DNA of 64,000 bases, taken from positions 3,924,921 through 3,988,920 of the forward strand of contig NZ_CP104302.1 in NCBI RefSeq assembly GCF_025215495.1, read 5' to 3'. Within the stretch, counting starts at the first letter, position 1, and the number at the start of each line of letters is the position of its first letter. The position numbers and the translations under genes are program-made. The notes beneath the pieces were generated by a model that was given only the letters and a program-made list of their open reading frames with translations, had not been told where the DNA came from and ran no database searches. This document shows positions 1-15,435 of this stretch, piece by piece. Source of the stretch: Mycolicibacterium brumae. Its GTDB lineage: Bacteria; Actinomycetota; Actinomycetes; Mycobacteriales; Mycobacteriaceae.

Positions 1-477
1 GCCGTCCTCAACGAGATAGGTCTTGCCGTGCAGGAATCCGCCGGAATACCGGCGCACTTCGACCTTCGCCTTCCCCTCAAGGTCGACGGTGCGAAGCCAC
101 TCGACCATCCGCTTGGCCTCTGCGGTAGGTACCCGTGCAAAACCCATCGTGTCCCGCTCAGCCTCAAGCCAGGACTGGTGGTGCCGGATCGCGGCATCAC
201 GCCGTGCGTCTTGATCGGAGTCGCCCGACACGATCGCCCGAACGGAATCTGCTTCAGGCTCTGCACCCAACAGTAGGCGGACCCGCGGGGCCAATTCCAG
301 CTCATCGGCGAGCAACGAGAATCCCCCAGGATTGACGTATGCCGTGGCGATTGCAATGGGCGGCGCAGTCACCTTGTTCTCCCGCAAGAGGCGGAACAAC
401 TCGTTGACCTTGTCGGCGACAGTCGCCGCAGCCTCGCTTGGCGAGTGATTTGTCGCGAAATCAGGTAGTTGAGTCAC
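1..477 (-). CDS. PLD-domain protein, probable defence helicase (5' part only)
   Basis: The first 159 codons are visible; the gene runs off the left edge. The start is a GTG that overlaps the stop of the upstream methyltransferase gene (GTGA, 4 bases), so the two are probably translationally coupled. The segment AYVNPGGFSLLADEL followed by APRVRLLLGAEPE, and later GGFLHGKTYLVEDG with an HxK motif, is typical of the phospholipase D-like (HKD) module that precedes SNF2-type helicase domains in prokaryotic defence proteins. One half of an HKD active site is seen directly. The helicase part is inferred from family architecture, since it would lie outside the window. Role inferred: nuclease or helicase partner of the neighbouring DNA methyltransferase. 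Confidence 0.65.
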   Translation of the reverse strand, partial: MTQLPDFATNHSPSEAAATVADKVNELFRLLRENKVTAPPIAIATAYVNPGGFSLLADELELAPRVRLLLGAEPEADSVRAIVSGDSDQDARRDAAIRHHQSWLEAERDTMGFARVPTAEAKRMVEWLRTVDLEGKAKVEVRRYSGGFLHGKTYLVEDG

Positions 478-3400
478 AACGACGCTGCCTCATATCCTGT
501 TGCCAGCATTTCGCACGCGAGATCGAAGATGGAAGCGGGAAAGCCGTCGTCGCTGAAGTCGCGCCGCACAATCTCGAAGTCGTCTGGTTGAAGCCCAAAC
601 CCATGTGCCACAACGGCTTCCGATCCGGCCCGCAACCGGTCGTAGCTGTCCCCACTGAACGGCGAGTTGTCGGCGATTCCGGCCACATCGATGCCGCTGG
701 CCAAGCAGGTGTATCCCGAATTTCGAAGCAACACAGCAGTCCGCTCGGCAAGCGTGGTGATATCCGCCTCTCCCAAAGCTGGTAGCGGCAGGTTGTTGAC
801 CACTTTGCTCGTAACGTGCCGGTCGACGAACCGGCGTGCCCACCAGTCTTCGGTGTTGGTGTTGAGCACACCGAGCAGCGCAAGCAGTACGTTTTCCGAG
901 GTTCCCGCTTTGTGGCCGATAGCGTGTACATATCCGGCGTTGTAAAGAAATCCTTTGTCCGGCAAAGCCGATGCGATCAAAGTCCGGGTGTCGTCGCTGC
1001 GACTCGGATATCGAAGGAGAACTACAGGGTGCTCGGGCTCGTACGAGGCTATGCCCTGCTCATCGATCGTTACCCCTTTTGATTTCGCAGCGAGGGCGCG
1101 AAAGTCGTCCACAAACTGTTTCGCTGCAACGCTACGGATCGAGAACGGGTCCAAGTGACGCGTCATCATCACTCGCCATGCGCCTGGGGACTCGGTTGAT
1201 ACGACCAGCCCGTGATCGCGGCCGGTCCGAGTGAAATCCCATCGCGCATCATGGGTCCCGATGACCCATGAGTCCTCCGACGAAAGCCGCGGGTAGTCAC
1301 GCATCTTGTCGAATACCAGTCGGTCACCAGGATCGTTGAACCAAGGGACCACCAAATTCTCGGAGAGGCTTGATAGCTCGTCGTGTGTGAATTTGATCAT
1401 CGACTCTGGCGCGATTGCACGAAGCTCAGCGGAGGATGTCACTACCATTACTTCGATGGGCTCGTCGGACTGGGGGCCCGCAGCGAGGAGCACCACCGCG
1501 TAGCGTGCGTCAACGCCTTCGAAGATCCATCCGCCGGCATTTCGCGCTTGGACAAGACTGACACGGTGGTGCGCAAAGAGTTTCTCTCGCAGGCGTTTCC
1601 ACCCGGCCAGGACCAGAAACTGCCGGGGTAGCACTAGGCCTATGCGGCCGGTGGAACGCACCGATGTGAGCGCCCGCTCCAGCATCAGTTGTGCGAGTTC
1701 TAGATGAGTGCCTCCCCGCAATGTGAAGACCTTTTTGAAGTATTCCTGCAGACGCTGGCGTTCGACTATCTCGGCTGCCTCCCGGGCAGCTTCTACCGGA
1801 CGCTCCTTGCGTAGCTCTTCGATGCGCGCGTCACGCTGGGTGTCAGGCAGGGCCATCAGGCCTGGACTGACTTTTGCCCAGAAGGGCGTGGCCTCCCATC
1901 GGACTTTGTCCCAAGGTGGATTTCCGATGATTGCGTCAAAACCTGGTGAGTTGCGGAGGAAGACCTCGGGGAACAGAAAGGGTAGATGTGCTGGCAGCAA
2001 ATCTTGCTCGACCTCTGCCACCTCGGGTCGAGCGAGCATCTGGAGCAATGCCCCTTCGTCCATGACTGTGTTCGGTGCCAGTGTCCCCATTCGAGCAGCC
2101 ACAGCGGCATCGAAGATTCGCCTGGCGGTATCAGCGGCCTCGTGCGCTTCAACAAGTAGGCGGGCGCTCTCTTCTATCTCGGCTTTGTTGGCTTCGCTGG
2201 CGTTCGCGACATCGACGAGAAGGGTTTTGGCGGAGGCCAATTGGTCGGTGAGTATCGAATCAAAAAGGCTGAGTTCTCCGGGGCGGCGGCCGGGTTGAAG
2301 TGCATCCAATGCTTCGTCGATTGTTGCTATGCCGGTCAAACTATTGCCATGGACGAGGCCGTGGTCGAGGTTGCTCATGGGCAAACCCGGGACAAAGGTG
2401 TGGATCCACAGGGCGAGGCGAGCGAGTTCGACCGCCATCGGGTTGATGTCGAGACCGTAGACGCAACGTCGGGCAACTTGGCGGCGCAGCAGGCCTACTT
2501 CGTCGACCTCGCTCTTGGCGACGTCGTCGGAACCGAGTGCCTCCTTCGCGACCCCCGCCAGACGCAACAACTCCTCATTGACTCCTGGAACCGTGTGCTC
2601 AGTGAGGAAGGTGCGCATCAGAGCTTCGATCTTGTCCACGGCCGCCACAAGGAAATGGCCCGATCCCATCGCGAGATCCGCCACCCGGAAGTCGAAGAAC
2701 TCTCGTGATGCGGTCGCTCCATCACCCTTCGCAAGGTGCTCCGCAATCGTCTGCAGGTGAGCCGTGAGAGCGGGAACGATCGACTGCTCGATCAGGTGGT
2801 CGACGACGACCTTCGGGGTGAAGTAGGAGCCCGTTGCTTTTCTTTCCCCTGACGCGGTGTGGAAGTACACCGAACCGGCTGGCGCGACCACTTCACCGTT
2901 TGTGGCCGGCACCCAGGCGCCGTTCTCGTCGAGGGTGAGGTCTTGCTCAGCCAGCGAGAGTGAACTCTCCAGGAGGCCCTCGTAAATCGTCCCGAACTCG
3001 CGAACGCTGAGGGATCGGAAATCCACTGCGCCGAGCACATCGTCGTCGGTGACATCGATCAACAAGCTCTTGAGCGCTGGGCCTAACACGCTGTCGGGAA
3101 GTTCGATCTTCTTGATCAACGCGCCTTCAGGCGAGCGCTCCGGATCGGTAGAGAAGAGGCCGCCGTTGTACGCGGGTATTTGCCACTGCGGATTGCCTTG
3201 ATCGATCGCATTCCACACTTGGATCAGATCCAGCCAGATCGTCGACGCGTCCCCGTACTCGGCGGTTTGTGATTCCAGAAGGCGCCGAGCATTGGTCTTA
3301 AGGCTGTTGGCGTCGAATCCTTCGTTGCGGCCCGACGGCAACAGCCCACGGTCCTCTGCGTATGCCTGAAATAGCAGGCGAAAGAGAATGCGAAGCGTGA

Positions 3401-4463
3401 TGCGGTAAGCGGTGGCGAGACCATCGGCGTCGAGTTGCACCTCTGCGTTCGCCGCAAGGCGCGTCGCTACCTCAACCGCGACCGGGGGGACAATCTCGTC
3501 GTAGATGCGCTCACGAAGACGCTCCCCAAGTTCGCTGGCGTAGCGCGCACTGTCGCGCAGCAGCTCATCGGCGGTACCACCGGCTTTCAACGCGTCCGCG
3601 GAAAAGATTAGCGGCAGCAGAGCAGCATTTTCGGAGTCGACCGTGGAAAGGTCGACCTCGAAGTAGGTCTCGGCCTGGCCCTTCGATCCGACGCCGACAC
3701 CATCGCGTCCCGGATACAGCCGTATTTGGTCCTTTCGCAGGACCATCAGCCATGGGACTTCCTCCCGAGAAGCCACGGCGAGGCCGAATGCGACGGGAGA
3801 CAGCTGGAACCGCTGAGTTTTTGCGTCGAACTGCTCGGAGTCGTCGAGCAGGACGGCGACAGCGCGAGGTTGGTGCCCGTCGATCGAAAGCAGTAACGTC
3901 CCATTCGGGCCTGGTTTGGTCTGGAATCCAAGTGCGTCGATCAGCTGTTTCCGGCGCTTGCCGAGCAGCGGCAGGGCCTGCTTGCCGAGGTCCTCCCAAT
4001 CGGCTCGATTCGGGACGTTGCTCAGGATGTGGTGAGTCGCGAATAGGCCGCTGTTGGTGAATCCCACGACGCCGGTGGAATCGCTGGATTTGCGGAAACC
4101 CGCGAATCGGTCGGTGGCAGCCAGGACGTCGGGCTCTAAAAGGATCGACTGCAGCTGGCGCGATGCCTGTTCGACGGGGAGTTCGATCGGTTGCGCTTGG
4201 GGATCGGGGCCGAAGAGGTGGGCTTTGCCGTCATGCACCACCGCCACCACGAGTTGTATCTGGGTCCTGCCTTTGCGTGCCGTGAAGAGGTCGCGCAGCG
4301 TCTGACGAGAGGGGACGGTCTCTGCGCTCGCGACTGCCACCTGGAAACCACCAAGTCCATGGGGATCCGGGCCCAGATACACCTTGTCGGTCGTGATCCC
4401 GGTGGGCGCCGATGGTTCACTCCAGGTCACGGCCTTGTCGGCAGTCAATCGCACTTGGCGCAT
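474..4463 (-). CDS. Large N6-adenine DNA methyltransferase, Eco57I/PglX-DrmMI type
   Basis: An intact protein of 1329 residues. Methyltransferase motifs are clear: YFTP (about 547-550), motif I DLAMGSGHFL (596-605), DINP (672-675) and the catalytic NPPW (848-851), marking an amino-methylating gamma-type adenine methyltransferase. About 540 residues precede the catalytic core. A long C-terminal half (about 950-1310, with NNLPLPAL) resembles the target-recognition part of type IIG enzymes. No nuclease motif is visible. Size and layout fit BREX PglX, DISARM DrmMI or type IIG-like modification subunits. It is coupled by a GTGA overlap to the PLD protein downstream. A strong GGGAGGAG lies directly against the ATG, so the real start may be the GTG three codons in (4454). 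Its exact defence class cannot be settled without the genes to the left. Confidence 0.8.
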   Translation of the reverse strand: MRQVRLTADKAVTWSEPSAPTGITTDKVYLGPDPHGLGGFQVAVASAETVPSRQTLRDLFTARKGRTQIQLVVAVVHDGKAHLFGPDPQAQPIELPVEQASRQLQSILLEPDVLAATDRFAGFRKSSDSTGVVGFTNSGLFATHHILSNVPNRADWEDLGKQALPLLGKRRKQLIDALGFQTKPGPNGTLLLSIDGHQPRAVAVLLDDSEQFDAKTQRFQLSPVAFGLAVASREEVPWLMVLRKDQIRLYPGRDGVGVGSKGQAETYFEVDLSTVDSENAALLPLIFSADALKAGGTADELLRDSARYASELGERLRERIYDEIVPPVAVEVATRLAANAEVQLDADGLATAYRITLRILFRLLFQAYAEDRGLLPSGRNEGFDANSLKTNARRLLESQTAEYGDASTIWLDLIQVWNAIDQGNPQWQIPAYNGGLFSTDPERSPEGALIKKIELPDSVLGPALKSLLIDVTDDDVLGAVDFRSLSVREFGTIYEGLLESSLSLAEQDLTLDENGAWVPATNGEVVAPAGSVYFHTASGERKATGSYFTPKVVVDHLIEQSIVPALTAHLQTIAEHLAKGDGATASREFFDFRVADLAMGSGHFLVAAVDKIEALMRTFLTEHTVPGVNEELLRLAGVAKEALGSDDVAKSEVDEVGLLRRQVARRCVYGLDINPMAVELARLALWIHTFVPGLPMSNLDHGLVHGNSLTGIATIDEALDALQPGRRPGELSLFDSILTDQLASAKTLLVDVANASEANKAEIEESARLLVEAHEAADTARRIFDAAVAARMGTLAPNTVMDEGALLQMLARPEVAEVEQDLLPAHLPFLFPEVFLRNSPGFDAIIGNPPWDKVRWEATPFWAKVSPGLMALPDTQRDARIEELRKERPVEAAREAAEIVERQRLQEYFKKVFTLRGGTHLELAQLMLERALTSVRSTGRIGLVLPRQFLVLAGWKRLREKLFAHHRVSLVQARNAGGWIFEGVDARYAVVLLAAGPQSDEPIEVMVVTSSAELRAIAPESMIKFTHDELSSLSENLVVPWFNDPGDRLVFDKMRDYPRLSSEDSWVIGTHDARWDFTRTGRDHGLVVSTESPGAWRVMMTRHLDPFSIRSVAAKQFVDDFRALAAKSKGVTIDEQGIASYEPEHPVVLLRYPSRSDDTRTLIASALPDKGFLYNAGYVHAIGHKAGTSENVLLALLGVLNTNTEDWWARRFVDRHVTSKVVNNLPLPALGEADITTLAERTAVLLRNSGYTCLASGIDVAGIADNSPFSGDSYDRLRAGSEAVVAHGFGLQPDDFEIVRRDFSDDGFPASIFDLACEMLATGYEAASL

Positions 4464-4591
4464 CTCCTCCCCGCTGGGCAGAATCTTGATCTGATCCCGT
4501 CACGGAACCTTAGCCACGGTCGCCGACGGAATGTGTATGACCCGCCTGATTCCGAATCCTGTCGGAGCAGGCGTCGACGGTCTTGCAGTAG

Positions 4592-5035
4592 TCAATCGGC
4601 CAGCGGGACGCCCGATCGGTCGGAGGCATGGTGCCGTCGTCGTATCGGGACGACCGCACCAGCCCCTGCCTGGTCGGATCTCAATTCATGGTTCTCAAGC
4701 GCGAGCACCTGGATGACGCGTTCGAGTTGGTGGATCGTCGCGGTGAGGGCCGTGACGTCCGCGGTCAGTGCCTTCACCTTCTTCGCGGCTTTGGCCTTTT
4801 CCTTCTGCAGCCCCCGAATCGCAGGCGGTTCCGTGTCGGTGTTCGCAATGCGGGCGCGGAACTCGGCTTGGAGGTCGGTGTGCCGGTGAGTTAGCAGCCA
4901 CCGCTTGATCTGCGCTTCCTGGGCGAGTGACTTCACGGTGAGCTTGCCGTCGGAGTGCAGTGGTTTGCCGGCGATGAGTCGATCCATCGCGTCGCGGATC
5001 GCGCGGCGCACATTCTCGTCAGGCTGGCCGCTCAT
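4592..5035 (-). CDS. Small coiled-coil TnpC-like accessory protein of element A
   Basis: A 147-aa protein whose ATG overlaps the stop of the recombinase gene before it (ATGA at 5033-5036). The N-terminus (MSGQPDENVRRAIRDAMDRL) is followed by a basic helical region. Residues about 75-130 form a heptad-rich coiled coil (KAKAAKKVKALTADVTALTA). Position, size and coiled coil match TnpC of Tn554-family elements (DUF6262-like), thought to influence orientation and frequency of transposition. The open frame extends upstream, but the overlap-coupled ATG at 5035 is the natural start. No enzymatic motif is present. Confidence 0.65.
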   Translation of the reverse strand: MSGQPDENVRRAIRDAMDRLIAGKPLHSDGKLTVKSLAQEAQIKRWLLTHRHTDLQAEFRARIANTDTEPPAIRGLQKEKAKAAKKVKALTADVTALTATIHQLERVIQVLALENHELRSDQAGAGAVVPIRRRHHASDRSGVPLAD

Positions 5036-7176
5036 CACGACCTCGCATTGTTCTGATGCTCGTCCACGATGCCTTGGAGGGCGGTGATGCGTCGTTCGAG
5101 CCGGCAGCGTAGCGGTATCGGCGTTGTGGGCGAGGCGATCTCGACCTGGTGCCGCGCGATGGCGTCCCGGATTTGGAGGATGTTCTGGTCGGTTCGGGCG
5201 ATGTTGCCGCATCCGGGTTGGCAGTGGGAGACATCAGGGGATCGCAGCTCGCTCGCCGTGACCTGTCGATCTGGATGGCACAGAGCTTTTGCTTGGTCGT
5301 AGCAGCAGGTGACGAACTGTTGCGGGTTGTCGTATATGCGCAGCTGCGGGTTGGCGCGCAGGGCGGCTGCCTGCTTGTTGCTCATGTAGCGGCCGCGGAA
5401 GTGCCGATCGAACAGATGGATGGCCTGGGTGTATCGGTCGGCGGCCGGGCCGCTGACCTGTTCACCGTCGTCGAGGCGTTGATGGGCGTCTTCGAGGTAG
5501 TCGGCCCGGGCGAGGGCTTCCTCCATTGGGAAGACGTCTCGCAGGCCGCCGGCGACCCGTGAGCCATAGCCGTCGGTGGTGTAGCCGCGCAGGTGTCCGT
5601 ACTGCACGCCGAGGGCCACACGTCCGCCTGGTTTGCGGTAGATGAACCAGGCCAGTGTTCGCCTGAACCGCTTGACCGTCACGGCGTCGTCGGGATCAGC
5701 GGGGATCACCTCGTGAGGACGTTCGAGCCTCTCGGCGGCGTGATTGCTCCAGTCGATCAAGTCCTGGATCCGGTCGCGGACCATGCGGGCGTGCACGGCC
5801 TTTCCGGCGTTGACACCGCAGGGCCATAGCGAGAACGCGTCGATCGGAAACAGAAGTTGGGAGGAGGGGTTCAGTGCTTCCATCACGGCGACGGCTTTGG
5901 CCACGGGTGCAATCGCCAGCCAGGGTTGTTCCCGTTCGACACCGGCGGGTATGGCGTTGCCCGACTGATCAAGTGCGCCTTTGAAGGTTCTGCCGTGAAT
6001 ACGGTAGTGGAGTTGCCCGGTCGCGGAGTCGGTGTGGGTTTGGCAGCAGCCACGCTCCAGTGCGCGGCACTCCTCGCCGCGCATCCCGGTCAGGTAGGCG
6101 ACGACGACGAACGCGGCGGTGGCCAGGTGGCGGCAGAACTCCTCGACCTCGTAGAAGCCGATCGCCGGCGTCCAGCCTTTCCCTTCGACGGAGCCTGTGA
6201 TCGGCATCGGCAGGTGCGCTTCGTCGCTGGCACTCAGGCCGGCTATCGGCCAGTGCGGATTCATCATCACGGCTTCTTCGGGAGACAGGCCCAGCTGCCA
6301 GCCGATGAATCCTTTTGCCAGAGAGCGTATGTGCGGCCGGTTGCTGCTGACCCATCCGGGCACCGTCTGTGAATCCTGGCGCCGCTGCTGGACGTACGCG
6401 CGAAACCGCTGATGGGGCGTGAGGGACTGGAGGCTGGGCGGGACATCGCGCGGTCTCGCTTTGAGTGCCTTTGCGGCAAGGATGTCGTCGCTGAAGTCGG
6501 TGACGAAGCGCAGGGCCCAGACCAGAAGGCCGGCCATCGTCTGCGGATGGATGGGGGTGGTCTTGTTTTCGCTCGACCAGTTCGCAGGCCCGAGCACCGA
6601 GGTGCGCCCGAGATAGCTGTTCTCCCATGGTGGGCGGGCGAGGCGGTCGACTTCGGGAAGGTACGGGGCGTAGAGCCAGGCACGGGTGACGGCGAACAGA
6701 ATGTTGCCCACGTTCTCGCGTGAGCCGCGGTGTCGTTTGAGGTGCTCGGCATATTCGTCGTAGATGGAGCCGCTGACCGCGTTGAACTCGTGGATGTCCT
6801 TCTCTGCCAGCCATGTCATCCACTGCCGTAGGAAGCGCGCGAACGTGCACACGGTTGCCGGTGCGAGTTGGCTGCGCGCCGCCGAGGAGCGTTCCAGATC
6901 CTCGACCGGGGTCGGCTTGTTGATGCTTGCCCAGATCAGTCGCTTGGCGGCGGCGACATAGCTCGGCGGGAAGGTGTCGAAGACGATGCTCAACGTGCCC
7001 GACACCGTGTGCTTCTGCACCAACGGTGTGAGATCCCAGCGGTTGTCGCCCACGGTGGAGAGAAGTCCGCGCCGCGCTTCAGGCACGCGCTCGATGTCGG
7101 CGATGACCGGGTCGGCGTCGTCAAGTTCGAGCCGACCAGTCTGTTGTGGCCACGAGTTGGCTGCGGCGATGCTCAC
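5035..7176 (-). CDS. Tyrosine recombinase, TnpB-like (element A)
   Basis: A 713-aa site-specific recombinase starting at a GTG that overlaps the previous gene's stop (GTGA). The catalytic domain lies in the C-terminal half: YLTGMRGEECRAL gives the first arginine, RFRRTLAWFIYRK the second conserved arginine box, and QYGHLRGYTTDGYG the histidine and likely tyrosine nucleophile. A cysteine/histidine cluster near the end (CCYDQAKALCHPD and HCQPGCGN) may bind zinc, as in other long TnpB proteins. The N-terminal half probably holds core-binding and protein-contact regions. It should act with the other two recombinases of the operon to excise and insert the element. Confidence 0.75.
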   Translation of the reverse strand: MSIAAANSWPQQTGRLELDDADPVIADIERVPEARRGLLSTVGDNRWDLTPLVQKHTVSGTLSIVFDTFPPSYVAAAKRLIWASINKPTPVEDLERSSAARSQLAPATVCTFARFLRQWMTWLAEKDIHEFNAVSGSIYDEYAEHLKRHRGSRENVGNILFAVTRAWLYAPYLPEVDRLARPPWENSYLGRTSVLGPANWSSENKTTPIHPQTMAGLLVWALRFVTDFSDDILAAKALKARPRDVPPSLQSLTPHQRFRAYVQQRRQDSQTVPGWVSSNRPHIRSLAKGFIGWQLGLSPEEAVMMNPHWPIAGLSASDEAHLPMPITGSVEGKGWTPAIGFYEVEEFCRHLATAAFVVVAYLTGMRGEECRALERGCCQTHTDSATGQLHYRIHGRTFKGALDQSGNAIPAGVEREQPWLAIAPVAKAVAVMEALNPSSQLLFPIDAFSLWPCGVNAGKAVHARMVRDRIQDLIDWSNHAAERLERPHEVIPADPDDAVTVKRFRRTLAWFIYRKPGGRVALGVQYGHLRGYTTDGYGSRVAGGLRDVFPMEEALARADYLEDAHQRLDDGEQVSGPAADRYTQAIHLFDRHFRGRYMSNKQAAALRANPQLRIYDNPQQFVTCCYDQAKALCHPDRQVTASELRSPDVSHCQPGCGNIARTDQNILQIRDAIARHQVEIASPTTPIPLRCRLERRITALQGIVDEHQNNARS

Positions 7177-8993
7177 GCGTCGAGATTCCTTCCGATGAGC
7201 GCAGTGACGACGTCGCGGTCAGCGTCGGTGACCTGGCGGCGGGCATCGCCGATCTCGGCCTTGGTCGCGTTCTGTTCGAGAATCGCCCGCAATCGGGAGT
7301 AGTGATCCCGGTAGTCAGACTCCCACCGGGCGGGGGCAACGAGGGTGGCGACATTGTCGAGGGCATCCAGCAGCGTGACCAGGCGCGGCAGATGCCCGGG
7401 GGTGACGACCGCGTTCGTGCAGGTGAAGCAGGCGAAGAATGAGGCCGGGCATGGCTCGCCGGCGGTGGCGGCAAACGGGCTGTTCAAGAAGTCGGTGCAC
7501 GCGGTGGTGGCGGTGTCGAGATTTCCGGCAAGCAGCAGCTTCAGCGTCGGCATCGAGATGCCGAGTTGTGTCGCGGCGGTTTCCGGGTCGGCGCGGGCGG
7601 CGGTCACTTCGGCGGCACTCAGCGAGCGGACCGAGACCGTGGCTTTGGCGTGGGCGACGGCATCAGCCTGTCCCTCGATGACGGTGTTGACAGCCCCTTC
7701 TGCGGTGGCCGGGTCCGGGCTGCGGTAAATGTCCTCGCTGACGGATTCACTGTTCTGCCGAGCATGTTGGTTCAACACCTGCTCGGAGAGCCGCAGCCGT
7801 CGCAGACTCACCCGCAATGATGTCCCGTCGTCGGCCAGCAGCCCGGCGTCGGCCATGTAGTGATCACCGATGCCCGCGGTCAACCATTCCTGCCGGAACG
7901 GGCCGACTCCGGTGCGGTTCTTGTGCCGGTGGGCAATGAGTAACTTCTCCGACGGGCTTCCGAGCTCGACGAGCGTCGCGCGGCACGGTTCGGTCAAGCG
8001 GACCGCGTTCTCCCACAGTTTTCCGGCCTCACCCGCAAGGATTTCGGCGCTGTAGCGCTTGGTACCTCGTCTCGGTTTATCGGTGTTGACGGTGTACACC
8101 GACTCTTCGGAGGCACCGTCGGATGCCCTGAACGAGGTCACGGTGAGGTTGTCCAGGACCGAGAGGTTGAACCCCCGCTCGCATACGAGAAGGACCATCA
8201 AGCAATAGATTTCCCGTATCGACGGGAACAACGCCTGCGCCGGATTCGACACGCCGGCCAGGTCGAAACAGCCCTTCAAGACCACCCGGTTCGCGAGGTA
8301 CTGCGAGGGAAGCATCCCGTTTCGCGACAGATACTCCAGAAGTGATCCGGTGCTCCATCGCGTCCCGCCGACCTTGAACGTGATTCCGTCCCCGACATCA
8401 CCAACCTCGCGGTAATGGTGCAGCTTCTCGGTGTTCGTCCGAATTCTGCGGAGCGCTTGACGGACCTCACCCTTGGCGGCACTGCGGATCCGCCCGAACT
8501 CGTCGCGACTGTAGGAATCATTCTCCGGCAAGCGTTTTCGAGGCTTCACGGCCTTCGCGCGCATCGCTTTCCGTGTGGTTTCGGGAAGGCGCGGCGATTC
8601 CGACAGCACGGTCCGCATGAGATTCACTTGCCCCGGCCAGCGGGCCTGACTCTCCTTCACGGTGCGCCACGCCCACCACACCTCGGGACCGAAGTCGGCG
8701 ATCGAGTGAACGTCGGGGAACTCCGTGATCAAATAGGCCATCAGTTGTCGCGCGGCACTCACCGCCGCATCTACGGTCGCAAGCGTGCGCCAACGACCAC
8801 CGGATTGAGACCCGTTCGCCAGCGCGGTGACCAGGTCATCGATCAATTCAGCGGGCCCGTGGACGTCATCGAATACGAATGTCCTCGTCCGTCCAGCCTC
8901 GTCAGTGAAGCAGAGCTGCCGAAGCTCAGGGTCCACCGGGGCGGGTCGGGCGTACTTGCCGGCGGGGAGTGCCGCTGTTCTACGGGAGGCCAC
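7173..8993 (-). CDS. Large recombinase-like protein of element A, degenerate catalytic site
   Basis: A 606-aa protein beginning at GTG, 3 bp after the first recombinase gene and overlapping the next by 4 bases. The fold-level similarity to phage-integrase proteins is weak: LRVSLRRLRLSEQVLNQ resembles the HxxR helix but lacks a clear histidine, and EDIYRSPDPATAE offers a possible tyrosine. A cysteine cluster, CPASFFACFTCTN, occurs near the C-terminus. Its place inside the coupled operon argues that it is needed for transposition, perhaps as a non-catalytic or architectural subunit. I assign recombinase relationship mainly from context. Confidence 0.55.
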   Translation of the reverse strand: MASRRTAALPAGKYARPAPVDPELRQLCFTDEAGRTRTFVFDDVHGPAELIDDLVTALANGSQSGGRWRTLATVDAAVSAARQLMAYLITEFPDVHSIADFGPEVWWAWRTVKESQARWPGQVNLMRTVLSESPRLPETTRKAMRAKAVKPRKRLPENDSYSRDEFGRIRSAAKGEVRQALRRIRTNTEKLHHYREVGDVGDGITFKVGGTRWSTGSLLEYLSRNGMLPSQYLANRVVLKGCFDLAGVSNPAQALFPSIREIYCLMVLLVCERGFNLSVLDNLTVTSFRASDGASEESVYTVNTDKPRRGTKRYSAEILAGEAGKLWENAVRLTEPCRATLVELGSPSEKLLIAHRHKNRTGVGPFRQEWLTAGIGDHYMADAGLLADDGTSLRVSLRRLRLSEQVLNQHARQNSESVSEDIYRSPDPATAEGAVNTVIEGQADAVAHAKATVSVRSLSAAEVTAARADPETAATQLGISMPTLKLLLAGNLDTATTACTDFLNSPFAATAGEPCPASFFACFTCTNAVVTPGHLPRLVTLLDALDNVATLVAPARWESDYRDHYSRLRAILEQNATKAEIGDARRQVTDADRDVVTALIGRNLDA

Positions 8994-8996
8994 CGC

Positions 8997-10448
8997 TCAC
9001 TGCTCCTCGGTGTCGACGATTCCAGGAGCCACCGCTGCGATGTGCGTGATGAAGTCGGCGATCGATGCGTCCTCCGCGCCGCCGTCATTGAGGAACAGGT
9101 CTACCTGCAAGCCAGACACCGGTTCGAGATAGCACTCGCGCGTGGTTTCCACGTTCACGTGGCCCAGTAACGTTTGAACCAAAACCCAAGGGTCACCGAA
9201 GATATGGCGATATTCGCGCCGTTCGGCAGAGGTGATGCCCATCTTGCGTTCGTGTGCGTAGATCAACGTGACCAACATCCTCAAGGCGAACGAGTGACGC
9301 AGCATATGCGGGTGACAATGGATGTCTACCCCAAGGGTCTGACACCGCTTGTTGGCCGTAGAGAAGATCGCCTCCCAAGTGCGGTACGGCAGCGGCAGAC
9401 CGGCTTCAGACAGCCACACCATCCAGGGTTCGAGCCCGCGATCAGTGGTGACGTAGAAGTTGAGTCGATCCGTTGAGTCGAGACTGTCCAGCGGTACGGT
9501 CCCTTTGGTTCCGTCCCGGCTGGTGAAGTGGACGCGGCGGTGATGGTCCACCGTGTCGACGATCTTGATGTCGGTCAGCGCATCGTAACGACCTTCGGCC
9601 CGGGCCCGGTTAACGGCCGCCGCTCGGGTTGAAATGACGTAGTTGTCAATGTGTTTCAGTGCTGCGGCGCTGATCCAGAAGTCACGGCCGCGGCCTTTCG
9701 CGACGGCTTGCCCGACTCGGGCATTGGCGTATCGCACTTGGCTGTCAGCGTTGGGAATCTCGCCCAGCACCAGCGTTCCAGCTTCTCGCAGTCGCAGTCC
9801 GCTCGACCACAGCGCTTCGGCGAATGCCAGGTTGCGGCCGTCGTTGCGTCCTCTCCAGGTCGTATCCCGTCGTCCGTCGCTGTGGTAGCCGCCGAGGCCG
9901 ACGTCGCGCCAGCGCTTGTAGGCTCGGGGCGTCAGCCACTTCAATTGGACCGAGCGGACAGCGTTCGGTTGCAGCCGCGAAGAAGATTCCCCAGTCGAGT
10001 TGGGTTTGTGCAGGGCGACAGGAGAAACAGTCACCTTGCCGCGCCACTGGTGCCAGTCGTAGAACTTCTTGATCGCCGCCAGATCCCGTGAAAACGTGGC
10101 TGCACCAACACGATCCGGGTTCTGTTGGTCGCGTCGACGCCAGAACTCGTAGTCGGCGAGATGCTCGAAGGCGGCTGCTCTCCAATCGATGCCTTGGACG
10201 GAGAGGAAGGAGAGAAACAGCTGGATGTCCGGGGCATAGGACTCCTGTGAGCCTGCCGCCAGCGATTGGAACGCCGCCGACCGGAAGAACTCCAGGACAT
10301 CGACGTCCGGCCGGCCATCGGGCATCAGGAGAAACGGTTGACCAGGACGGATTCCGAGCGCGGCCTCACGGTCTGCTAGATCGGGGAAGTCTGCAAGGAC
10401 ATCGGACCTCGCGGTGTACGGCCGGCTAGGCTGCCGCGCCCAACACAA
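8997..10448 (-). CDS. Tyrosine recombinase, TnpA-like (element A)
   Basis: First gene of the recombinase operon, about 483 aa. The core-binding domain includes SQESYAPDIQLFLSFLSVQG. The catalytic domain shows WSSGLRLREAGTL (Arg I), HPHMLRHSFALRML (HxxR) and LLGHVNVETTRECYLEPV (His and nucleophile Tyr), so all key residues are present. The reading frame stays open far upstream into the IS21 element, which cannot be native. The TTG at 10448 is the most upstream start inside element A and lies 70 bp from the element end; the ATG at 10325 is the alternative. Probably the main strand-exchange enzyme. Confidence 0.75.
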   Translation of the reverse strand: MCWARQPSRPYTARSDVLADFPDLADREAALGIRPGQPFLLMPDGRPDVDVLEFFRSAAFQSLAAGSQESYAPDIQLFLSFLSVQGIDWRAAAFEHLADYEFWRRRDQQNPDRVGAATFSRDLAAIKKFYDWHQWRGKVTVSPVALHKPNSTGESSSRLQPNAVRSVQLKWLTPRAYKRWRDVGLGGYHSDGRRDTTWRGRNDGRNLAFAEALWSSGLRLREAGTLVLGEIPNADSQVRYANARVGQAVAKGRGRDFWISAAALKHIDNYVISTRAAAVNRARAEGRYDALTDIKIVDTVDHHRRVHFTSRDGTKGTVPLDSLDSTDRLNFYVTTDRGLEPWMVWLSEAGLPLPYRTWEAIFSTANKRCQTLGVDIHCHPHMLRHSFALRMLVTLIYAHERKMGITSAERREYRHIFGDPWVLVQTLLGHVNVETTRECYLEPVSGLQVDLFLNDGGAEDASIADFITHIAAVAPGIVDTEEQ

Positions 10449-10518
10449 CCTCCACCGGGAGCCGTCGCCGTGTTGTTCCACAGCAACAGAACCTGCCACA
10501 ACACACCGACATTTTACG

Positions 10519-10562
10519 GAAGGGCGGGTTTGACATGCAGAAGTCGAAGGTGCGGTCCCAGA
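10519..10562 (-). pseudogene. hsdM: hsdM fragment 3 (catalytic NPPF segment)
   Basis: The 44 bases between element A and the IS21 copy encode, in the frame of the hsdM fragment beyond the IS, DRTFDFCMSNPPF. This contains motif IV NPPF of the type I methyltransferase subunit. After removal of the IS21 and one copy of its 6-bp duplication, the sequence reads DDLFW-DRTFDF without a break. Homology ends at base 10519, where element A begins. The rest of HsdM (about the C-terminal third) is not in the window. Confidence 0.85.
10557..10562. repeat. Target-site duplication of IS21 (left copy, CCCAGA)
   Basis: CCCAGA immediately precedes the IS left end and recurs at 13236-13241 immediately after the right end. 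A 6-bp duplication is within the usual size for IS21-family insertions. Confidence 0.93.
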
Positions 10563-10670
10563 TGTTAAGCCGGGGCTTTCGGTAGCGCCTGTGTAACTAT
10601 CCGGTAGCAGTGGCGCGGGTATCTGGTAGCGCTGTTCGAGGATCGCTTTCATCCGTGGCCGCAGGGGTCG
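10563..10670 (+). repeat. IS21 left end with multiple GGTAGC repeats
   Basis: The terminal region holds the inverted repeat plus three copies of a GGTAGC core (TTCGGTAGCG, TCCGGTAGCAG, TCTGGTAGCG). Counterparts in inverse orientation lie at 13165-13220 near the other end. IS21-family ends typically carry such multiple transposase-binding repeats. Confidence 0.8.
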
Positions 10671-10694
10671 CGGCGATTGAGAGGGATCCCGCGG

Positions 10695-12389
10695 ATGACG
10701 GATTACCGGTATGTGATGGGCCTGCTGGTGCAGGGACTGGCCTATAGGCAGATCGAAGCGATGGCGGGGTGCTCGCACCGGGCGATCGCCCGGGCCCGCC
10801 GTGTGCTCGATGAGGAGCAGTTGAGCACCGCCGAGCAGGTCGCGGCGCTGACCGCTGAGGATCTGGATCGGCTGTTCGCCGATGGCCGCAAGAACGTGGC
10901 CAGTGAGTTCGTGCCGGTCGATATCGACAAGGTCGTCGCGGCGCGGCTGGGTCGCAAGAAGCCGCCGTTGAAGGTGCTGTGGAGCCAGTACCTGCGATCC
11001 GATGCGGCCCCGGGCGCCCGGTTCTACGGGTATGAGCGCTACTGCCAGATCGTCACCGAGCACGTCCGGGTCAACGATCTGAGTGTGCCGATCGCCCACG
11101 TGCCGGGGCATACGATGCAGGTCGATTGGGCGGGCACGCCGATGAAGGTGACCGATCCGATCACCCGGGCGGTGACACCGGTGTCGGTGTTCGTGGCGAC
11201 GTTGCCGTTCTCGGGGATGGTGTTCGCCTACGGCTACTTCGATGAGAAACAGCCCGCGTGGTGCGATGGGCATCGGCGGGCGTTCGAGTATTTCGGCGGG
11301 GTCGCCCAGGTGATCGTCCCGGACAACGCTTCGACGGCGTCAAACCAGATCAGCCGCATCGACCGGGCCCGCGACGTCAACGCCTCGTATCAGGATTTCC
11401 TGGCCCACTATGGGGCCGCGGCGGTGCCGACACGCTCAAATCGCCCGCGGGACAAAGGGAACGCCGAAGCGGGGGTGAAGGTCATCACCAACTGGGTGAT
11501 CCACTTCCTGGCCGATCGGGTGTTCGCCTGCCTTGATGACCTCAACGCGGCGGTCGCCGCCCAAGTCGAGCAGATCAACGACCGGACCCCGTTTCGCGGG
11601 GAGGCGCGGGCGCGGCGTGGCTGGTTCGACGACCATGAGCGCGGCGAGCTCATCGGGTTGCCCGAGCAGCGGTGGGAACCGGTGTGCTGGCGCAAGGCGA
11701 AGGTGCACCGGGATTGGCATATCCAGCTCGACACCATCAAGTACTCGGTGCCCTACCGGTTCGCCGGGCGCGGGGTGGACGTGCGGATTATCGGCACGAC
11801 GATCGAGGTGCTCGCCGATGGGCAGATCATCGCCGCCCACCAGCAGGGCCGGCACCGCAACGGCTATGTCACCGACCCTGAGCACGCGCCCCCGCACTAT
11901 GAGTCGGTGACCGGATTGTGGACCCGCGGTTACTTCCTGCGCCAGGCCGGCAAGGTCGGCCCGGCCACGGTGGCCGCGCTCACCCGGCTGCTCGATGGCA
12001 AGGCGATCGAGGCCCAGGGCTACCGGTCCTGCATGAACATCCTGGACCTGGGCAAACGCGCCAGCGCCAACCGGATGCTGCTGGAGGCTGCCTGCCGCGA
12101 GCTCATCGCCGAGGACGCGCACCGGCCGATCACCTACACCGCGGTCAAACACCGCATCAGCGCGCTGCGCGCCGACGGCAACCAACGACCCACCACCATC
12201 GGCGGGGACGGCGATGCCGCCAACCCGATCACGCCAGCATCCAGACCCGCAGCGGCCGGGGTGGCCGGCCGTGACACCAGCCGCGCGCACCTGGCCGGCG
12301 CCGAAGCGTTCAGCCTCGACGCGCTCACCACCGGTGACCGGCGCACCGATGACGGTGGCGATGACGCCGGGGCGGGAGTCCAGCGATGA
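10695..12389 (+). CDS. istA: IS21-family transposase IstA
   Basis: A DDE transposase of 564 aa. The N-terminal helix-turn-helix region (QGLAYRQIEAMAGCSHRAIA) binds the IS ends. The catalytic acidic residues are seen in HTMQVDWAGTP, VIVPDNASTAS and RDKGNAEAGVKVITNWV, the last giving the glutamate. The ATG at 10695 is preferred over the TTG six codons earlier because GAGAGGGAT lies at a proper distance before it. It overlaps istB by ATGA, so IstA and the IstB ATPase are made together. It cuts and joins the element ends. Confidence 0.93.
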   Translation: MTDYRYVMGLLVQGLAYRQIEAMAGCSHRAIARARRVLDEEQLSTAEQVAALTAEDLDRLFADGRKNVASEFVPVDIDKVVAARLGRKKPPLKVLWSQYLRSDAAPGARFYGYERYCQIVTEHVRVNDLSVPIAHVPGHTMQVDWAGTPMKVTDPITRAVTPVSVFVATLPFSGMVFAYGYFDEKQPAWCDGHRRAFEYFGGVAQVIVPDNASTASNQISRIDRARDVNASYQDFLAHYGAAAVPTRSNRPRDKGNAEAGVKVITNWVIHFLADRVFACLDDLNAAVAAQVEQINDRTPFRGEARARRGWFDDHERGELIGLPEQRWEPVCWRKAKVHRDWHIQLDTIKYSVPYRFAGRGVDVRIIGTTIEVLADGQIIAAHQQGRHRNGYVTDPEHAPPHYESVTGLWTRGYFLRQAGKVGPATVAALTRLLDGKAIEAQGYRSCMNILDLGKRASANRMLLEAACRELIAEDAHRPITYTAVKHRISALRADGNQRPTTIGGDGDAANPITPASRPAAAGVAGRDTSRAHLAGAEAFSLDALTTGDRRTDDGGDDAGAGVQR

Positions 12390-13147
12390 ATGACCAGCAC
12401 CTCAGCGTCGATGACATGCCCGTGTTCACCAAACTGCGGATGACCGCCTTCGGCGAAGCCGTCATCGACATCGCCAACGACCCCACCTACGACCAGTGGA
12501 GCTTCTCCCGAAAGATCCGCCACGCCCTGGAGCAGGAGACCGCCGCTCGCGCCGAGCGGCGTGTGCTCAAGCTCCTCAAAGCCTCCCGGACACCGAATCC
12601 AGCGGCCTGCGTCGAAGACATCCACTACCTCGATGGCCGAAACATCAACCGGGACTTGATCGAGCGCCTCGCCGCATGCCGGTGGATCGACCGCACACAC
12701 AACTTGGTCATCCTCGGCAAATCCAGCGTCGGCAAGTCGTATCTGGCCCAAGCCCTGGTCAACGCCGCCTGCCGCCGGGACTACACCGCCAGATACTTCC
12801 GGCTCGACGACCTGGCCAACCAGCTCGCGGTCTACCAACGCCACGACGCCGGGCGGCTGACGTTCCTCACCGGCGTGCACACCTGCGAACTGCTCGTCCT
12901 CGACGACTTCCTGACCACCCCGATCACCGGCGAAACCGCCGCCGAACTGCTCAACATCCTCGCCGCCCGAGAAGGCCGCGGATCCACCGTCGTCACCAGC
13001 CAATTCGACCCCGAAGACTGGTACCGATCCCTACACGACGCTGTCATCGCCGAGTCCATCCTCAACCGCATCGTCTCCACCGCCGAACTGGTCCAGCTCG
13101 ACGGACCCAACATGCGCCGGCACGGCCACGAGACTGCGACCGAGTAG
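12386..13147 (+). CDS. istB: IS21-family helper ATPase IstB
   Basis: An AAA+ protein of 253 aa related to DnaA/DnaC. Walker A is LGKSSVGKSYLAQ (residues about 110-122), Walker B is LLVLDDFL, and a sensor region follows (VVTSQFDPEDWY). In IS21 transposition IstB forms ATP-dependent oligomers that bend target DNA and deliver it to IstA. Its start overlaps the istA stop. No defect is visible. Confidence 0.93.
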   Translation: MNDQHLSVDDMPVFTKLRMTAFGEAVIDIANDPTYDQWSFSRKIRHALEQETAARAERRVLKLLKASRTPNPAACVEDIHYLDGRNINRDLIERLAACRWIDRTHNLVILGKSSVGKSYLAQALVNAACRRDYTARYFRLDDLANQLAVYQRHDAGRLTFLTGVHTCELLVLDDFLTTPITGETAAELLNILAAREGRGSTVVTSQFDPEDWYRSLHDAVIAESILNRIVSTAELVQLDGPNMRRHGHETATE

Positions 13148-13235
13148 AAAGCGCGGGCGCGAGGACCGCTACCCGATCCCCGCGCCCGCGCTACCACTTC
13201 GTCACACAACCGCTACCGAACGCCCCTGCTAAACA

Positions 13236-13963
13236 CCCAGAACAGATCGTCGTGCAGGGTGTCACCGAGGCGGATGTTGTCGGCGTCCTGGCCCTTGACG
13301 ATCATGTCGGACTTGCAAATCGCATAGGACTGATCGTTGATCTCCTGGCCGTACAGCCGCAACCGCGCCTCCGGGTTGCGCTCCAGCAGCCGCTCCTCCG
13401 CGACCGACAACATGCCACCGGTGCCGGCCGTGGGGTCGTAGATTGTGCGGACCGTTCCGGGTTCGCGCAGCGCATCGCCGTCTTCGGCGAACAGCAGGTC
13501 CACCATGAGCCGGATGGCGTCGCGGGGGGTGTAGTGCTCACCGGCCTCCTCGTTGGAGGCTTCGGCGAACTTGTAGATCAGGTGCTCGAACAGGTCGCCC
13601 ATCTCGGCGTTGGACACCACATCCGGGTGCAGGTCCACTTCCGCGAACTGCGAACACACCAGGTACAGCCGGTTCTTCTCATCCAGGGTGGCGAGTTCGT
13701 TCTCGAACTTGAACCGCTCGAACACGTCGATGTTGGCCGAGAACCCGGTGATGTAGTCCACTAGGTTAGCCCGCAGGCCCTCCGGATCCTCTAGCAGACG
13801 TCTGAAATCAAATGCGCTGGTGTTGTAGAAGCTGAGCCCAGTTCGGCGCTTGACCTGAACAGTGAGCGCCCCCCCCCGGCGTATTCTTCAGATAGCGCCC
13901 GGACCTCGCTTCGACCAGGTTCCAAGACACAGTCCAGCCGTCGCAGGATCGTAAACGGCAGAA
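13236..13963 (-). pseudogene. hsdM: hsdM fragment 2 (type I methyltransferase core), frameshifted
   Basis: Reading downward from 13963 the sequence encodes LPFTILRRLDCVLEP. After a frame change at the G-tract it continues with TGLSFYNTSAFDF, DYITGFSANIDVFERFKFE and HYTPRDAIRLMVDLL. Motif I follows as YDPTAGTGGMLSVAEERLL, then GDTLHDDLFW. These are hallmark segments of HsdM, the N6-adenine methyltransferase subunit of type I restriction systems. The fragment is cut at the start by an IS3-family element (codons VI-LP split) and at the end by IS21. With a frameshift and two insertions it cannot make HsdM. Confidence 0.93.
13869..13877. repeat. Nine-base C/G homopolymer causing frameshift in hsdM
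   Basis: On the coding (minus) strand the run is G9 after GCC. The upstream frame (SEEYAGGG) and the downstream frame (QVKRRTGLSFYNTS) match HsdM but are out of register. Tract lengths of 7 or 10 would put them in one frame. It could be a slippage mutation, a phase-variable tract, or a sequencing error. Confidence 0.8.
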
Positions 13964-13993
13964 TGAGCTTCCCCCGAAATCGTGGAGGGTTCC

Positions 13994-14929
13994 TTATGCC
14001 GCTTCCGGCTTGGTGTTGGCTTCCCTGATTTCGTAGTCGACGGGCGATAACCCGTCTGCGGCACTGTGCCGGCGTTGGTGATTGTAGAAAGTGTGACACC
14101 AATCCATGACCACTGGACGCGCATCCACAATATCATGAAAACGGTTGCGGGACAGCACTTCCCACTCCAGCGATGAGAAGAACGATTCCGCGACCGCGTT
14201 GTCGAAACATGATCCCACCCGACCCATCGACTGCCGGATCCCCAGCTTCCGGCACGTCTTGGCGTACAACTTGGAGGTATAGACGCTGCCCCGGTCGCTG
14301 TGGAAAATCACCCGCTGACCAGGATCTTCACGCCAGATCACCGCCCGGCCGCCGCGGACCGCCACGGCCATCTTGATCGCCGCGCACGCCAACTCGGCGT
14401 CCGGACGCAGGCCCATCGCCGACCCCAGCAGCCGCCGGCCAAACAAATCGATCACGGTGGCCAAGTAGCACTTCTGACCCGACTCCGTCGGAATCTCGGT
14501 GATATCGCCCACCCATTTCTGATTCGGCCGATCGGCGCTGAACTTCCGTTTCACCAGGTCAGGGAACTTCGGCGCCGACGGATCCTGAACCGTCAGGCAC
14601 CGCCGCCGGCGGATCCGCCGCGCCACCAACCCCTGACGGCGCATCGAATCGGCCACCGTCTTCTCCGAGACCGCCCACCCCTCATCACGCAGGTCTGCGA
14701 CCAACCGCGGTGACCCGTGCAATTCCCGGGCTTTGCCGAACGCCTCCTTGACCGCGGCGTCACGCTCAGCACGGCGACGCTCCCGCTCAGTGTGCACACC
14801 GTCGGGGTCATCCGCGCGGGCGATCCACTTATAGAACCACGCCAGACTCACCCCCAGCAGAGCGCACGTGATCGTATGCGGCACACGGTATTTGGTCCTC
14901 TGGTCAGCGACAAAGCGTGCCACGCTCAC
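13994..14929 (-). CDS. IS3-family transposase OrfB (DDE catalytic part)
   Basis: 311 aa from the GTG at 14929, which overlaps the orfA stop (AAGTGAGCG) as usual in IS3 elements, where OrfAB is made by frameshifting. An HTH-like N-terminal region (YRVPHTITCALLGVSLAWFY) precedes the integrase core. The DDE residues are in WVGDITEIPTESG, VIFHSDRGSVYTS and FDNAVAESFFSSLEWE. The catalytic frame is intact, but orfA is physically split, so the IS should no longer move on its own. An in-frame extension up to 15019 reads into the inserted transposon and is not native. Confidence 0.9.
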   Translation of the reverse strand: MSVARFVADQRTKYRVPHTITCALLGVSLAWFYKWIARADDPDGVHTERERRRAERDAAVKEAFGKARELHGSPRLVADLRDEGWAVSEKTVADSMRRQGLVARRIRRRRCLTVQDPSAPKFPDLVKRKFSADRPNQKWVGDITEIPTESGQKCYLATVIDLFGRRLLGSAMGLRPDAELACAAIKMAVAVRGGRAVIWREDPGQRVIFHSDRGSVYTSKLYAKTCRKLGIRQSMGRVGSCFDNAVAESFFSSLEWEVLSRNRFHDIVDARPVVMDWCHTFYNHQRRHSAADGLSPVDYEIREANTKPEAA

Positions 14930-14976
14930 TTCGTCGCCTCCTTCACCCACAGGACCACGGATCGCTTGAGGACATC
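14926..14976 (-). pseudogene. 3' remnant of IS3 orfA
   Basis: DNA just outside element B encodes DVLKRSVVLWVKEATK and a stop, the standard C-terminus of this OrfA family. Joined to the 18859-19098 piece it gives RMER-DVLKRS, proving that element B inserted within orfA. Confidence 0.88.
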
Positions 14977-15015
14977 CATCGTTATCTTCAGCCGCCGTCA
15001 GGGATCCCGGTGTGA

Positions 15016-15435
15016 TCATGGTTGTTGCGTCGTGGACAGTGTCTTCGACGTAGTTGTCCGGCTGGCGCGGATTTGGCCGTGGAGATGGGCAATTTGACTG
15101 CGGAGTCGGTGGTTATCCTCATCGAGTTCCCGGATCCGTTGGTGAGCGAGGGTAAGCCGTTGCCGTAGCGATGCGTCACTGGCGGGTTGGGGAGATTTCG
15201 TGGGGTGGCCGGGCGCGGGCGGGCGTCGGGCACGGATCCTGCGGATTTCGTCTTTGAGGTCGGTTTGGGTGTAGAGCCAGGATCGTGAGACATCGGCGCG
15301 GTCGGCCACGGCCTGGAAACTGATCGCGGCGCCGGCCCGGTCGAGGTCATGTAGGGCGGCGATCGCTTTGGCTCGGGTCTGTTCATGGCGCTGCTTGGCC
15401 GCGGCGACAAGGTGAGAGCTGTTGTCAGCACGCAT
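15016..15435 (-). CDS. tnpC: TnpC-like accessory protein of element B (DUF6262 type)
   Basis: 139 aa, starting at an ATG that lies inside the end of tnpB (11-bp overlap). The N-terminal half has a helix-turn-helix look (ISFQAVADRADVSRSWLYTQ). A coiled-coil-like stretch follows (RQRLTLAHQRIRELDEDNHR). Size and position match Tn554 TnpC, which is not catalytic but helps set transposition frequency and orientation. The stop lies about 35 bp from the element's end, leaving no room for cargo. Confidence 0.8.
   Translation of the reverse strand: MRADNSSHLVAAAKQRHEQTRAKAIAALHDLDRAGAAISFQAVADRADVSRSWLYTQTDLKDEIRRIRARRPPAPGHPTKSPQPASDASLRQRLTLAHQRIRELDEDNHRLRSQIAHLHGQIRASRTTTSKTLSTTQQP

What the first reader, a model, noticed from the sequence alone, without database searches (positions are those of the whole stretch)
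1..10562. A methyltransferase/PLD defence pair may be cargo of a Tn554-like transposon that destroyed a type I restriction gene
The recombinase operon of element A ends 70 bp from a sharp break in hsdM, and the methyltransferase and PLD genes follow on the same strand directly after the tnpC-like gene. In Tn554-family elements cargo sits in exactly that place. No hsdM remainder is found at the low-coordinate side of the recombinase genes, as expected if the element continues leftward past the window. This would be a defence module swapped into a restriction locus by a tyrosine-recombinase transposon.
Basis: partly seen in the sequence, partly recalled or inferred. Interest (0 to 1): 0.75.

Follow-up and report, generated by a model that had tools for sequence, protein, structure and literature searches.

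The report
Mobile island targeting DNA-methylase catalytic motif
A mobile DNA island has landed exactly inside the active-site code of a bacterial DNA-methylation defence gene and brought its own defence-like genes along, and its relatives do the same in several unrelated kinds of methylation defence genes.

Summary
It is not Tn554-like; it has the four-gene layout of a GInt (ginABCD, then cargo).

The larger finding is the target. Of 22 related loci with a readable right junction, 20 sit in DNA methylases at the codons of catalytic motif IV, (N/D)-P-P-(F/Y) or one variant: hsdM, type ISP, type III mod, Eco57I-like, IIG-like, HmaB. One more has the motif without other support; one is not a methylase. 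Collapsing near-identical targets: 16, 1 and 1 of 18. The crossover is CCNCCN (Pro-Pro); its two copies differ only at codon third positions. In this genome none of 18 other copies of the 12-mer lies in a DNA methylase by eye. All 9 elements with classified cargo carry another methylase-bearing defence system; in one genome a BREX island is nested in an HMA island. GInts and their defence cargo are known; seven literature searches found no report of this target. No function was tested.

The parts
1..477 (-). 5' end of the PLD-SNF2 helicase cargo gene (1149 aa; continues left of the window to L002:15948)
   Evidence: PLDc_2, SNF2 and Helicase_C by Pfam; PADLOC C3a139 (HKD+Snf2), DrmD-like, PLD_Helicase
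474..4463 (-). cargo DNA methylase, 1329 aa, Eco57I type, IIG/DrmMI-like; motif IV reads NPPW
   Evidence: Pfam Eco57I; PADLOC REase_MTase_IIG 585 bits, DrmMI 224 bits; motif codons
4592..5212 (-). ginD-like small coiled-coil protein (206 aa as read; start uncertain)
   Evidence: ORF; conserved next to ginC in relatives; no family match
5035..7176 (-). ginC-like recombinase, 713 aa
   Evidence: No Pfam or NCBIfam match; plasmid relatives annotated as integrase
7173..8993 (-). ginB-like protein, 606 aa
   Evidence: No significant Pfam match; 129 relatives; conserved between ginA and ginC
8997..10448 (-). ginA, Xer-like tyrosine recombinase (483 aa as read; start uncertain)
   Evidence: Pfam Phage_integrase and Phage_int_SAM_1 (on a longer reading of the frame)
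10499..10521 (-). right end of the element, TTCCGTAAAATGTCGGTGTGTTG, inverted relative to the left end
10522..10527 (-). right copy of the crossover core CCGCCC = Pro-Pro codons of hsdM motif IV; the left copy is L002:13901-13906, outside the window
10528..10562 (-). hsdM 5' part, piece next to the junction (WDRTFDFCMSN)
10563..13235 (+). IS21-like element inside hsdM (istA 10677-12389, istB 12386-13147), CCCAGA on both sides
   Evidence: ends read; ORFs; about 26% identity to annotated IS21 istA/istB of the M. poriferae plasmid
13236..13975 (-). hsdM 5' part, farther piece, with an apparent frameshift at a C run near 13875 and a break near 13975
   Evidence: N6_Mtase on 13213-13761; frameshift and break by reading

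Best explanation
The interval is the right two-thirds of a 15.5-kb GInt-type element. Its recombinase set (ginA-D) integrates a circular form at a short site whose 6-bp crossover is CCNCCN. The element arms are TACGGAA and TTCCGTA; the target arms are the codons for N or D and for F or Y. In DNA methylases this site is the code for catalytic motif IV, (N/D)PP(F/Y). Third codon positions in the crossover may mismatch, so one recombinase set can use motif IV of unrelated methylases. Integration cuts the resident methylase in two. In the systems hit (type I, ISP, III, IIG/Eco57I-like, HMA) the methylase chain is expected, from general knowledge of these families, to be needed for restriction too, so its loss should not cause self-restriction. 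The element brings another methylase-bearing defence-like set: here an IIG/DrmMI-like methylase, a PLD-SNF2 helicase and an Mrr-like protein. The net effect is a swap of one methylation-based defence for another. Shown by sequence: borders, gene layout, target motif in many loci, cargo type, one nested case. Inferred: circular intermediate, strand-exchange chemistry, that the cargo defends, and any benefit to element or host.
For: Both ends and the hsdM remainder; uninterrupted hsdM in G020. Of 22 loci with a readable right junction (21 printed plus L100), 20 lie in methylases with independent support. Cores at both ends in 9 elements: 3 identical, 6 differing, all 8 differences at core positions 3 or 6. 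The lineage is one clade in a GinA tree (90/90; 97/94 without Ferrithrix); 17 more distant loci show no such motif within 450 nt of ginA. 12-mer background: 18 other copies in this genome, none in a DNA methylase by eye. Cargo holds a defence-type methylase in 9 of 9 elements classified.
Against: One locus (L090, PSTR-4-N) is not in a methylase, and L087 has only the motif. L100 carries a variant (NPCS; core not CCNCCN). Several targets are the same allele, so events are fewer than loci. Cargo methylases are not spared: 9 of 13 with a motif carry the 12-mer. GinB and GinC have no significant integrase match in Pfam or NCBIfam. The AT-rich 3' end of published GInts is absent. No movement or defence activity was tested.
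Confidence: 0.8

Rival explanations
1. The recombinases recognise only a short GC-rich DNA sequence. Defence methylases are found because they are dispensable, so insertions there survive while others are lost. Hitting defence genes is then a by-product, not an evolved strategy.
For: The 12-mer AAYCCNCCNTWY is short, and it also occurs in other methyltransferases that seem not to be hit (two PrmC-like and one RsmC-like reading in this genome, judged by eye), as expected if such hits are lost. One insertion (L090) is outside methylases at a fitting core.
Against: 15 of the 18 other copies in this genome are in neither kind of methyltransferase and eight other genomes hold 17 to 42 copies each (contexts not read), yet 20 of 22 junctions are in methylases. 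Two targets begin with GAC, so the true DNA site is even less specific than the 12-mer.
Confidence: 0.35
2. There were few ancestral insertions; cargo and recombinase genes were then exchanged by homologous recombination at already occupied sites.
For: Four ISP targets are 99.6-100% identical and two hsdM targets are identical over 600 nt although the cargo differs.
Against: Targets include families with little or no detectable similarity to one another (hsdM, ISP, type III mod, HmaB, Eco57I-like); collapsing still leaves 18 target alleles, 16 in methylases.
Confidence: 0.05
3. A Tn554-like transposon with defence cargo.
For: Tyrosine recombinases, small last gene, cargo behind it, 6-bp footprint.
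Against: Four genes instead of three; ginB and ginC lie between the Xer-like gene and the small gene.
Confidence: 0.03

Closest known systems
[quoted passage not shown] called a Tn6571-family transposon in PMC10121019); PMC5385486, parts 1-2 of 6 and passages read
   Same: Four-gene operon, cargo directly after the fourth gene, short imperfect repeats, site-specific insertion, about 6-nt exchange with mismatch tolerance; published GInts often carry restriction-modification or other defence genes
   Different: [quoted passage not shown] here the site is inside catalytic motif IV of methylases. The AT-rich 3' end is absent. Homology to the Pseudomonas genes was not tested.
Tn554 family
   Same: Tyrosine recombinases, site specificity, small last gene
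   Different: Three genes; radC target (recalled, from no call)
SE elements and RIT elements (PMC10214605, PMC8138268; passages read)
   Same: Two or three tyrosine recombinases, 6-bp footprint in SEs, inverted repeats
   Different: SEs carry intA-tfp-intB-srap and form separate protein clusters from GInts; RITs have three recombinase genes; neither is described in the passages as hitting methylases
Streptococcal ICEs with serine-integrase triplets in hsdM (PMC4701971; passages read)
   Same: Site-specific insertion that disrupts hsdM
   Different: Serine recombinases, conjugative elements; the passages tell of hsdM, mutT and traG, not of a motif shared by unrelated methylases

Membership tests
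GInt | Four-gene operon at one end (three recombinase-like genes and a small fourth gene) | tested here: met
   Order, sizes and strand of ginA-D here and in relatives
GInt | All three large genes are integrases | tested here: inconclusive
   ginA: Phage_integrase. ginB and ginC: no significant Pfam or NCBIfam match; ginC relatives on plasmids are annotated integrase
GInt | Cargo begins right after ginD | tested here: met
   ginD ends at 4592, cargo methylase starts at 4463
GInt | Imperfect direct repeats at the ends, site-specific insertion | tested here: met
   Core CCGCCCT at both ends; 9 elements with both ends
GInt | Short AT-rich 3' end | tested here: not met
   39% AT over 190 nt against 38% for the window part of the element; 41 and 42% in two relatives. 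Filed therefore as GInt-type, not as a strict member
GInt | Sequence homology to published GinABCD | not tested
   No Pseudomonas GInt sequence was compared
GInt | Circular intermediate; all four genes essential | not testable with these tools
   Needs experiments
Tn554 family | Three-gene tnpABC operon | tested here: not met
   Four genes
DISARM (cargo) | drmA, drmB and drmC beside drmMI/drmD | tested here: not met
   Three cargo genes only; the best models are IIG/DrmMI-like, HKD+Snf2/DrmD-like and weak LmuA-like; DrmD scores 139.7 bits against an NCBIfam cut-off of 610

The most novel reading that the evidence does not exclude
A lineage of mobile islands whose attachment site is the catalytic motif of methylation-based immunity itself. 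The recombinases tolerate codon wobble, so they reach unrelated methylase families; each integration switches off one resident methylation defence and installs another. Repeated rounds, as in the BREX island inside the HmaB gene of an HMA island inside hsdM, would make this an engine of defence-system turnover.
Probability: 0.55. Interest if true: 0.9.

Novelty: new variant of a known kind. Interest (0 to 1): 0.78.

Why it matters
How defence systems replace each other at one place in a genome is poorly explained. Here a mobile element uses the most conserved stretch of one class of defence genes as its doorway and carries a substitute of the same class. That gives a concrete, testable route for defence turnover, a rule for finding broken methylases together with the islands that broke them, and a recombinase family whose target is defined almost at the protein level through codon wobble.

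Tried and rejected
Tn554 membership: rejected on gene count and layout. DISARM for the cargo: rejected, core genes missing. Self-protection of cargo methylases by an altered motif: rejected. Viral contigs and phages (E up to 1e-30) gave no relatives. Order-wide GinA search: 10 of 397 genomes at E up to 1e-60; class-wide: 2 of 394 at E up to 1e-85; only the window's own element belongs to this lineage. The genus of R. coprophilus: 1 of 18 genomes, itself.

A correction found on checking: one search read the wrong side of ginA in the outgroup loci that are not turned. One search repeated this with the right orientation for 17 outgroup loci; none has an (N/D/S)PP(F/Y/W/C) reading within 450 nt upstream of the ginA match, though L075, L143 and L145 have such readings farther off (over 1 kb).

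Rows dropped or not examined: L069/L091 (one element; contig begins inside ginA, no junction); G334, same record as the M. poriferae plasmid, counted once; L080 and L081 and G291 left out of the tree; GinB hits at 36% identity or less not examined at their junctions unless they reappeared as outgroup loci; hits H16, H17, H19-H23, H25-H46 and 18 unlisted records not opened. GinC relatives not opened.

Literature searches: (listings, titles, abstract starts). Passages read: PMC5385486 (also parts 1-2 of 6), PMC10121019, PMC4701971, PMC6222049, PMC10214605, PMC8138268. None of what I read reports methylase motif IV as the site of an island.

Full report
1. What is there. The window is the last 64 kb of a single-contig genome of 3,988,920 bp. 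Its held relatives include many of its own genus, and named records of the close loci are mostly mycobacteria. I fetched the 39 kb left of the window. On the - strand the order is: hsdM 5' part; right core at window 10522-10527; ginA 8997-10448; ginB 7173-8993; ginC 5035-7176; ginD 4592-5212; DNA methylase 474-4463; PLD-SNF2 helicase from 477 leftwards (1149 aa); a 596-aa gene with weak Mrr_cat (below cut-off) and LmuA-like matches; left core at L002:13901-13906; hsdM 3' part; hsdS; hsdR. The element is 15,541 bp core to core. Its ends are inverted and partly alike: right TTCCGTAAAATGTCGGTGTGTTG, left CAACACGCCGAAACCCTGTACGGAA.

2. The split gene. The right side reads ...FDFCMSNPPF, the left side PPYGVDWK...; genome G020 carries FDFCMSNPPYGVDWK in one open frame. 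Separately, an IS21-like element (10563-13235, CCCAGA on both sides) interrupts the 5' part, and by reading the farther 5' part has a frameshift and another break near 13975. In this strain hsdM is thus a multiply broken relic; the hsdS and hsdR frames are open.

3. What kind of element. Four genes, cargo after the fourth, imperfect repeats and an about 6-nt exchange are the published description of GInts (PMC5385486, read). One published trait, an AT-rich 3' end, is not met; homology to the Pseudomonas genes was not tested; ginB and ginC have no significant family match. Hence 'GInt-type'.

4. The target is general. Relatives came from 396 genomes of the genus, a named scan of genome contigs and plasmids. 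Twenty-two loci have a readable right junction. hsdM or hsdM-like, 8: this window; M. canariasense L055; M. austroafricanum outer element L059; Mycolicibacter senuensis L063; R. coprophilus L096; a Rhodococcus MAG L095; Ferrithrix thermotolerans L097; R. pyridinivorans PE41 L139. Type ISP, 8: G164 L054; HKST-UBA35 L061; HKST-UBA43 L060; M. poriferae plasmid L098; G148 L066; Gordonia sihwensis L094; R. pyridinivorans Y6 L099; Ornithinimicrobium L100, where the reading is GNPCS and the core is not CCNCCN. Eco57I-like, 1: L093. IIG-like, 1: L092. HmaB (DUF1156 methylase), 1: M. austroafricanum inner element L058. Type III mod-like, 1: Gordonia terrae L101, YIDPP on one side and PPYNTGNDG on the other. 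NPPF without other support, 1: L087 (60 aa; nothing in NCBIfam, only weak and mixed PDB matches). Not a methylase, 1: L090. Support for the 20 comes from Pfam, PADLOC, NCBIfam, record annotation and direct comparison. For L101 Pfam and NCBIfam found nothing on the N part; the evidence is annotation, motif and BLAST to a type III mod.

5. Independence. Four ISP targets are 99.6-100% identical over 1018 aa, and the M. canariasense and M. austroafricanum hsdM are identical over 600 nt. Collapsed, 18 target alleles remain: 16 methylases with support, 1 motif only, 1 not a methylase.

6. Chance. AAYCCNCCNTWY occurs 19 times in this genome; the same pattern read backwards occurs 10 times. I read the 18 copies other than the junction: by eye none lies in a DNA methylase, three lie in other methyltransferases (two PrmC-like, one RsmC-like) and 15 elsewhere. 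Eight other genomes hold 17 to 42 copies (backwards pattern 4 to 39); their contexts were not read. Two targets (L058, L101) begin with GAC and are not covered by that pattern. A recombinase using the bare 12-mer at random would be expected mostly to miss DNA methylases. Whether the rest of the preference is recognition or selection is not settled.

7. The crossover. In 9 elements with both ends the cores are CCNCCN. Three are identical at the two ends; six differ, at 8 positions in all, all third or sixth bases, the third positions of the Pro-Pro codons. This fits the mismatch tolerance reported for GInts (PMC5385486).

8. Lineage. In a GinA tree of 36 rows the 21 of this lineage form one clade (90/90; 97/94 without Ferrithrix); 15 rows are outgroup, 46% identity or less to this GinA. 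One search, with corrected orientation, found no motif within 450 nt of ginA in 17 outgroup loci. Long outgroup branches leave the deeper order unsure.

9. Cargo. Eight elements were scanned with PADLOC and one was read from annotation; all nine have a defence-type DNA methylase behind ginD. This window: IIG/DrmMI-like + PLD-SNF2. M. senuensis and G. terrae: PLD helicase + IIG-like. M. austroafricanum outer: HmaA, HmaB, HmaC. M. austroafricanum inner: PglX, PglZ, BrxL (a 1152-aa neighbour was not scanned). G. sihwensis: PLD-Snf2 + type III mod and res. R. pyridinivorans Y6: IIG-like, helicase, GIY-YIG. Ferrithrix: methylase + IIG-like. M. poriferae: type I M, S, R with SIR2 and DUF87. For G. 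sihwensis and R. pyridinivorans Y6 the left end was not found, so membership of their cargo rests on position. M. canariasense, PSTR-4-N, R. coprophilus and the Rhodococcus MAG look alike by similarity or start sequence only. Between this window and M. senuensis ginA to ginC are 86-90% identical and ginD 68%, while the PLD helicases are 27%, so cargo is exchanged.

10. Nesting. In M. austroafricanum the inner BREX-type island sits at the DPP codons of HmaB, itself cargo of the outer island in hsdM. The target in L092 is 89% identical over 44 aa to the cargo methylase of M. senuensis, a possible second case.

11. The pair without the island. The methylase-PLD pair of this window occurs in 5 of 296 other genomes of the genus, with no gin gene of this lineage in the stretches fetched. 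It is a portable module.

12. Literature. GInts carrying restriction-modification and other defence are known (PMC5385486, PMC10121019), and serine-integrase ICEs in hsdM are known (PMC4701971). Seven searches showed no report of an island whose site is methylase motif IV. The library is incomplete, so this is absence from the searches, not proof.

Noticed in passing
window 10563-13235: IS21-like element inside hsdM with CCCAGA on both sides, a second insertion in the same gene.
   Followed up: partly
window 13836-14102 and 13994-15019: By reading, the 5' part of hsdM has a frameshift at a C run near 13875 and breaks near 13975, next to an IS3-like transposase frame (no family search run on it).
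   Followed up: no
window 15016-17641: A second tyrosine recombinase (738 aa, Phage_integrase) with a small gene beside it. Recombinases 27-29% like it lie near the methylase-PLD pair in G034 (L134:6219-6836) and G229 (L138:3793-4542).
   Followed up: partly
L057-L059 (M. austroafricanum): Nested islands: a BREX-bearing GInt inside the HmaB gene of an HMA-bearing GInt inside hsdM.
   Followed up: yes
L090 (Mycobacterium sp. PSTR-4-N): The single insertion outside a methylase; its cores (right CCGCCT, left CCACCC) still fit CCNCCN.
   Followed up: partly
L100 (Ornithinimicrobium plasmid): Relative whose right junction reads GNPCS in a type ISP gene; its end differs from the rest and resembles that of Gordonia terrae. 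Its recombinase genes look disrupted.
   Followed up: partly
plasmids of Agrobacterium, Sphingobium and others: Distant GinC-like proteins, about 25-28% identical over most of the length, annotated as integrase; their sites were not examined.
   Followed up: no
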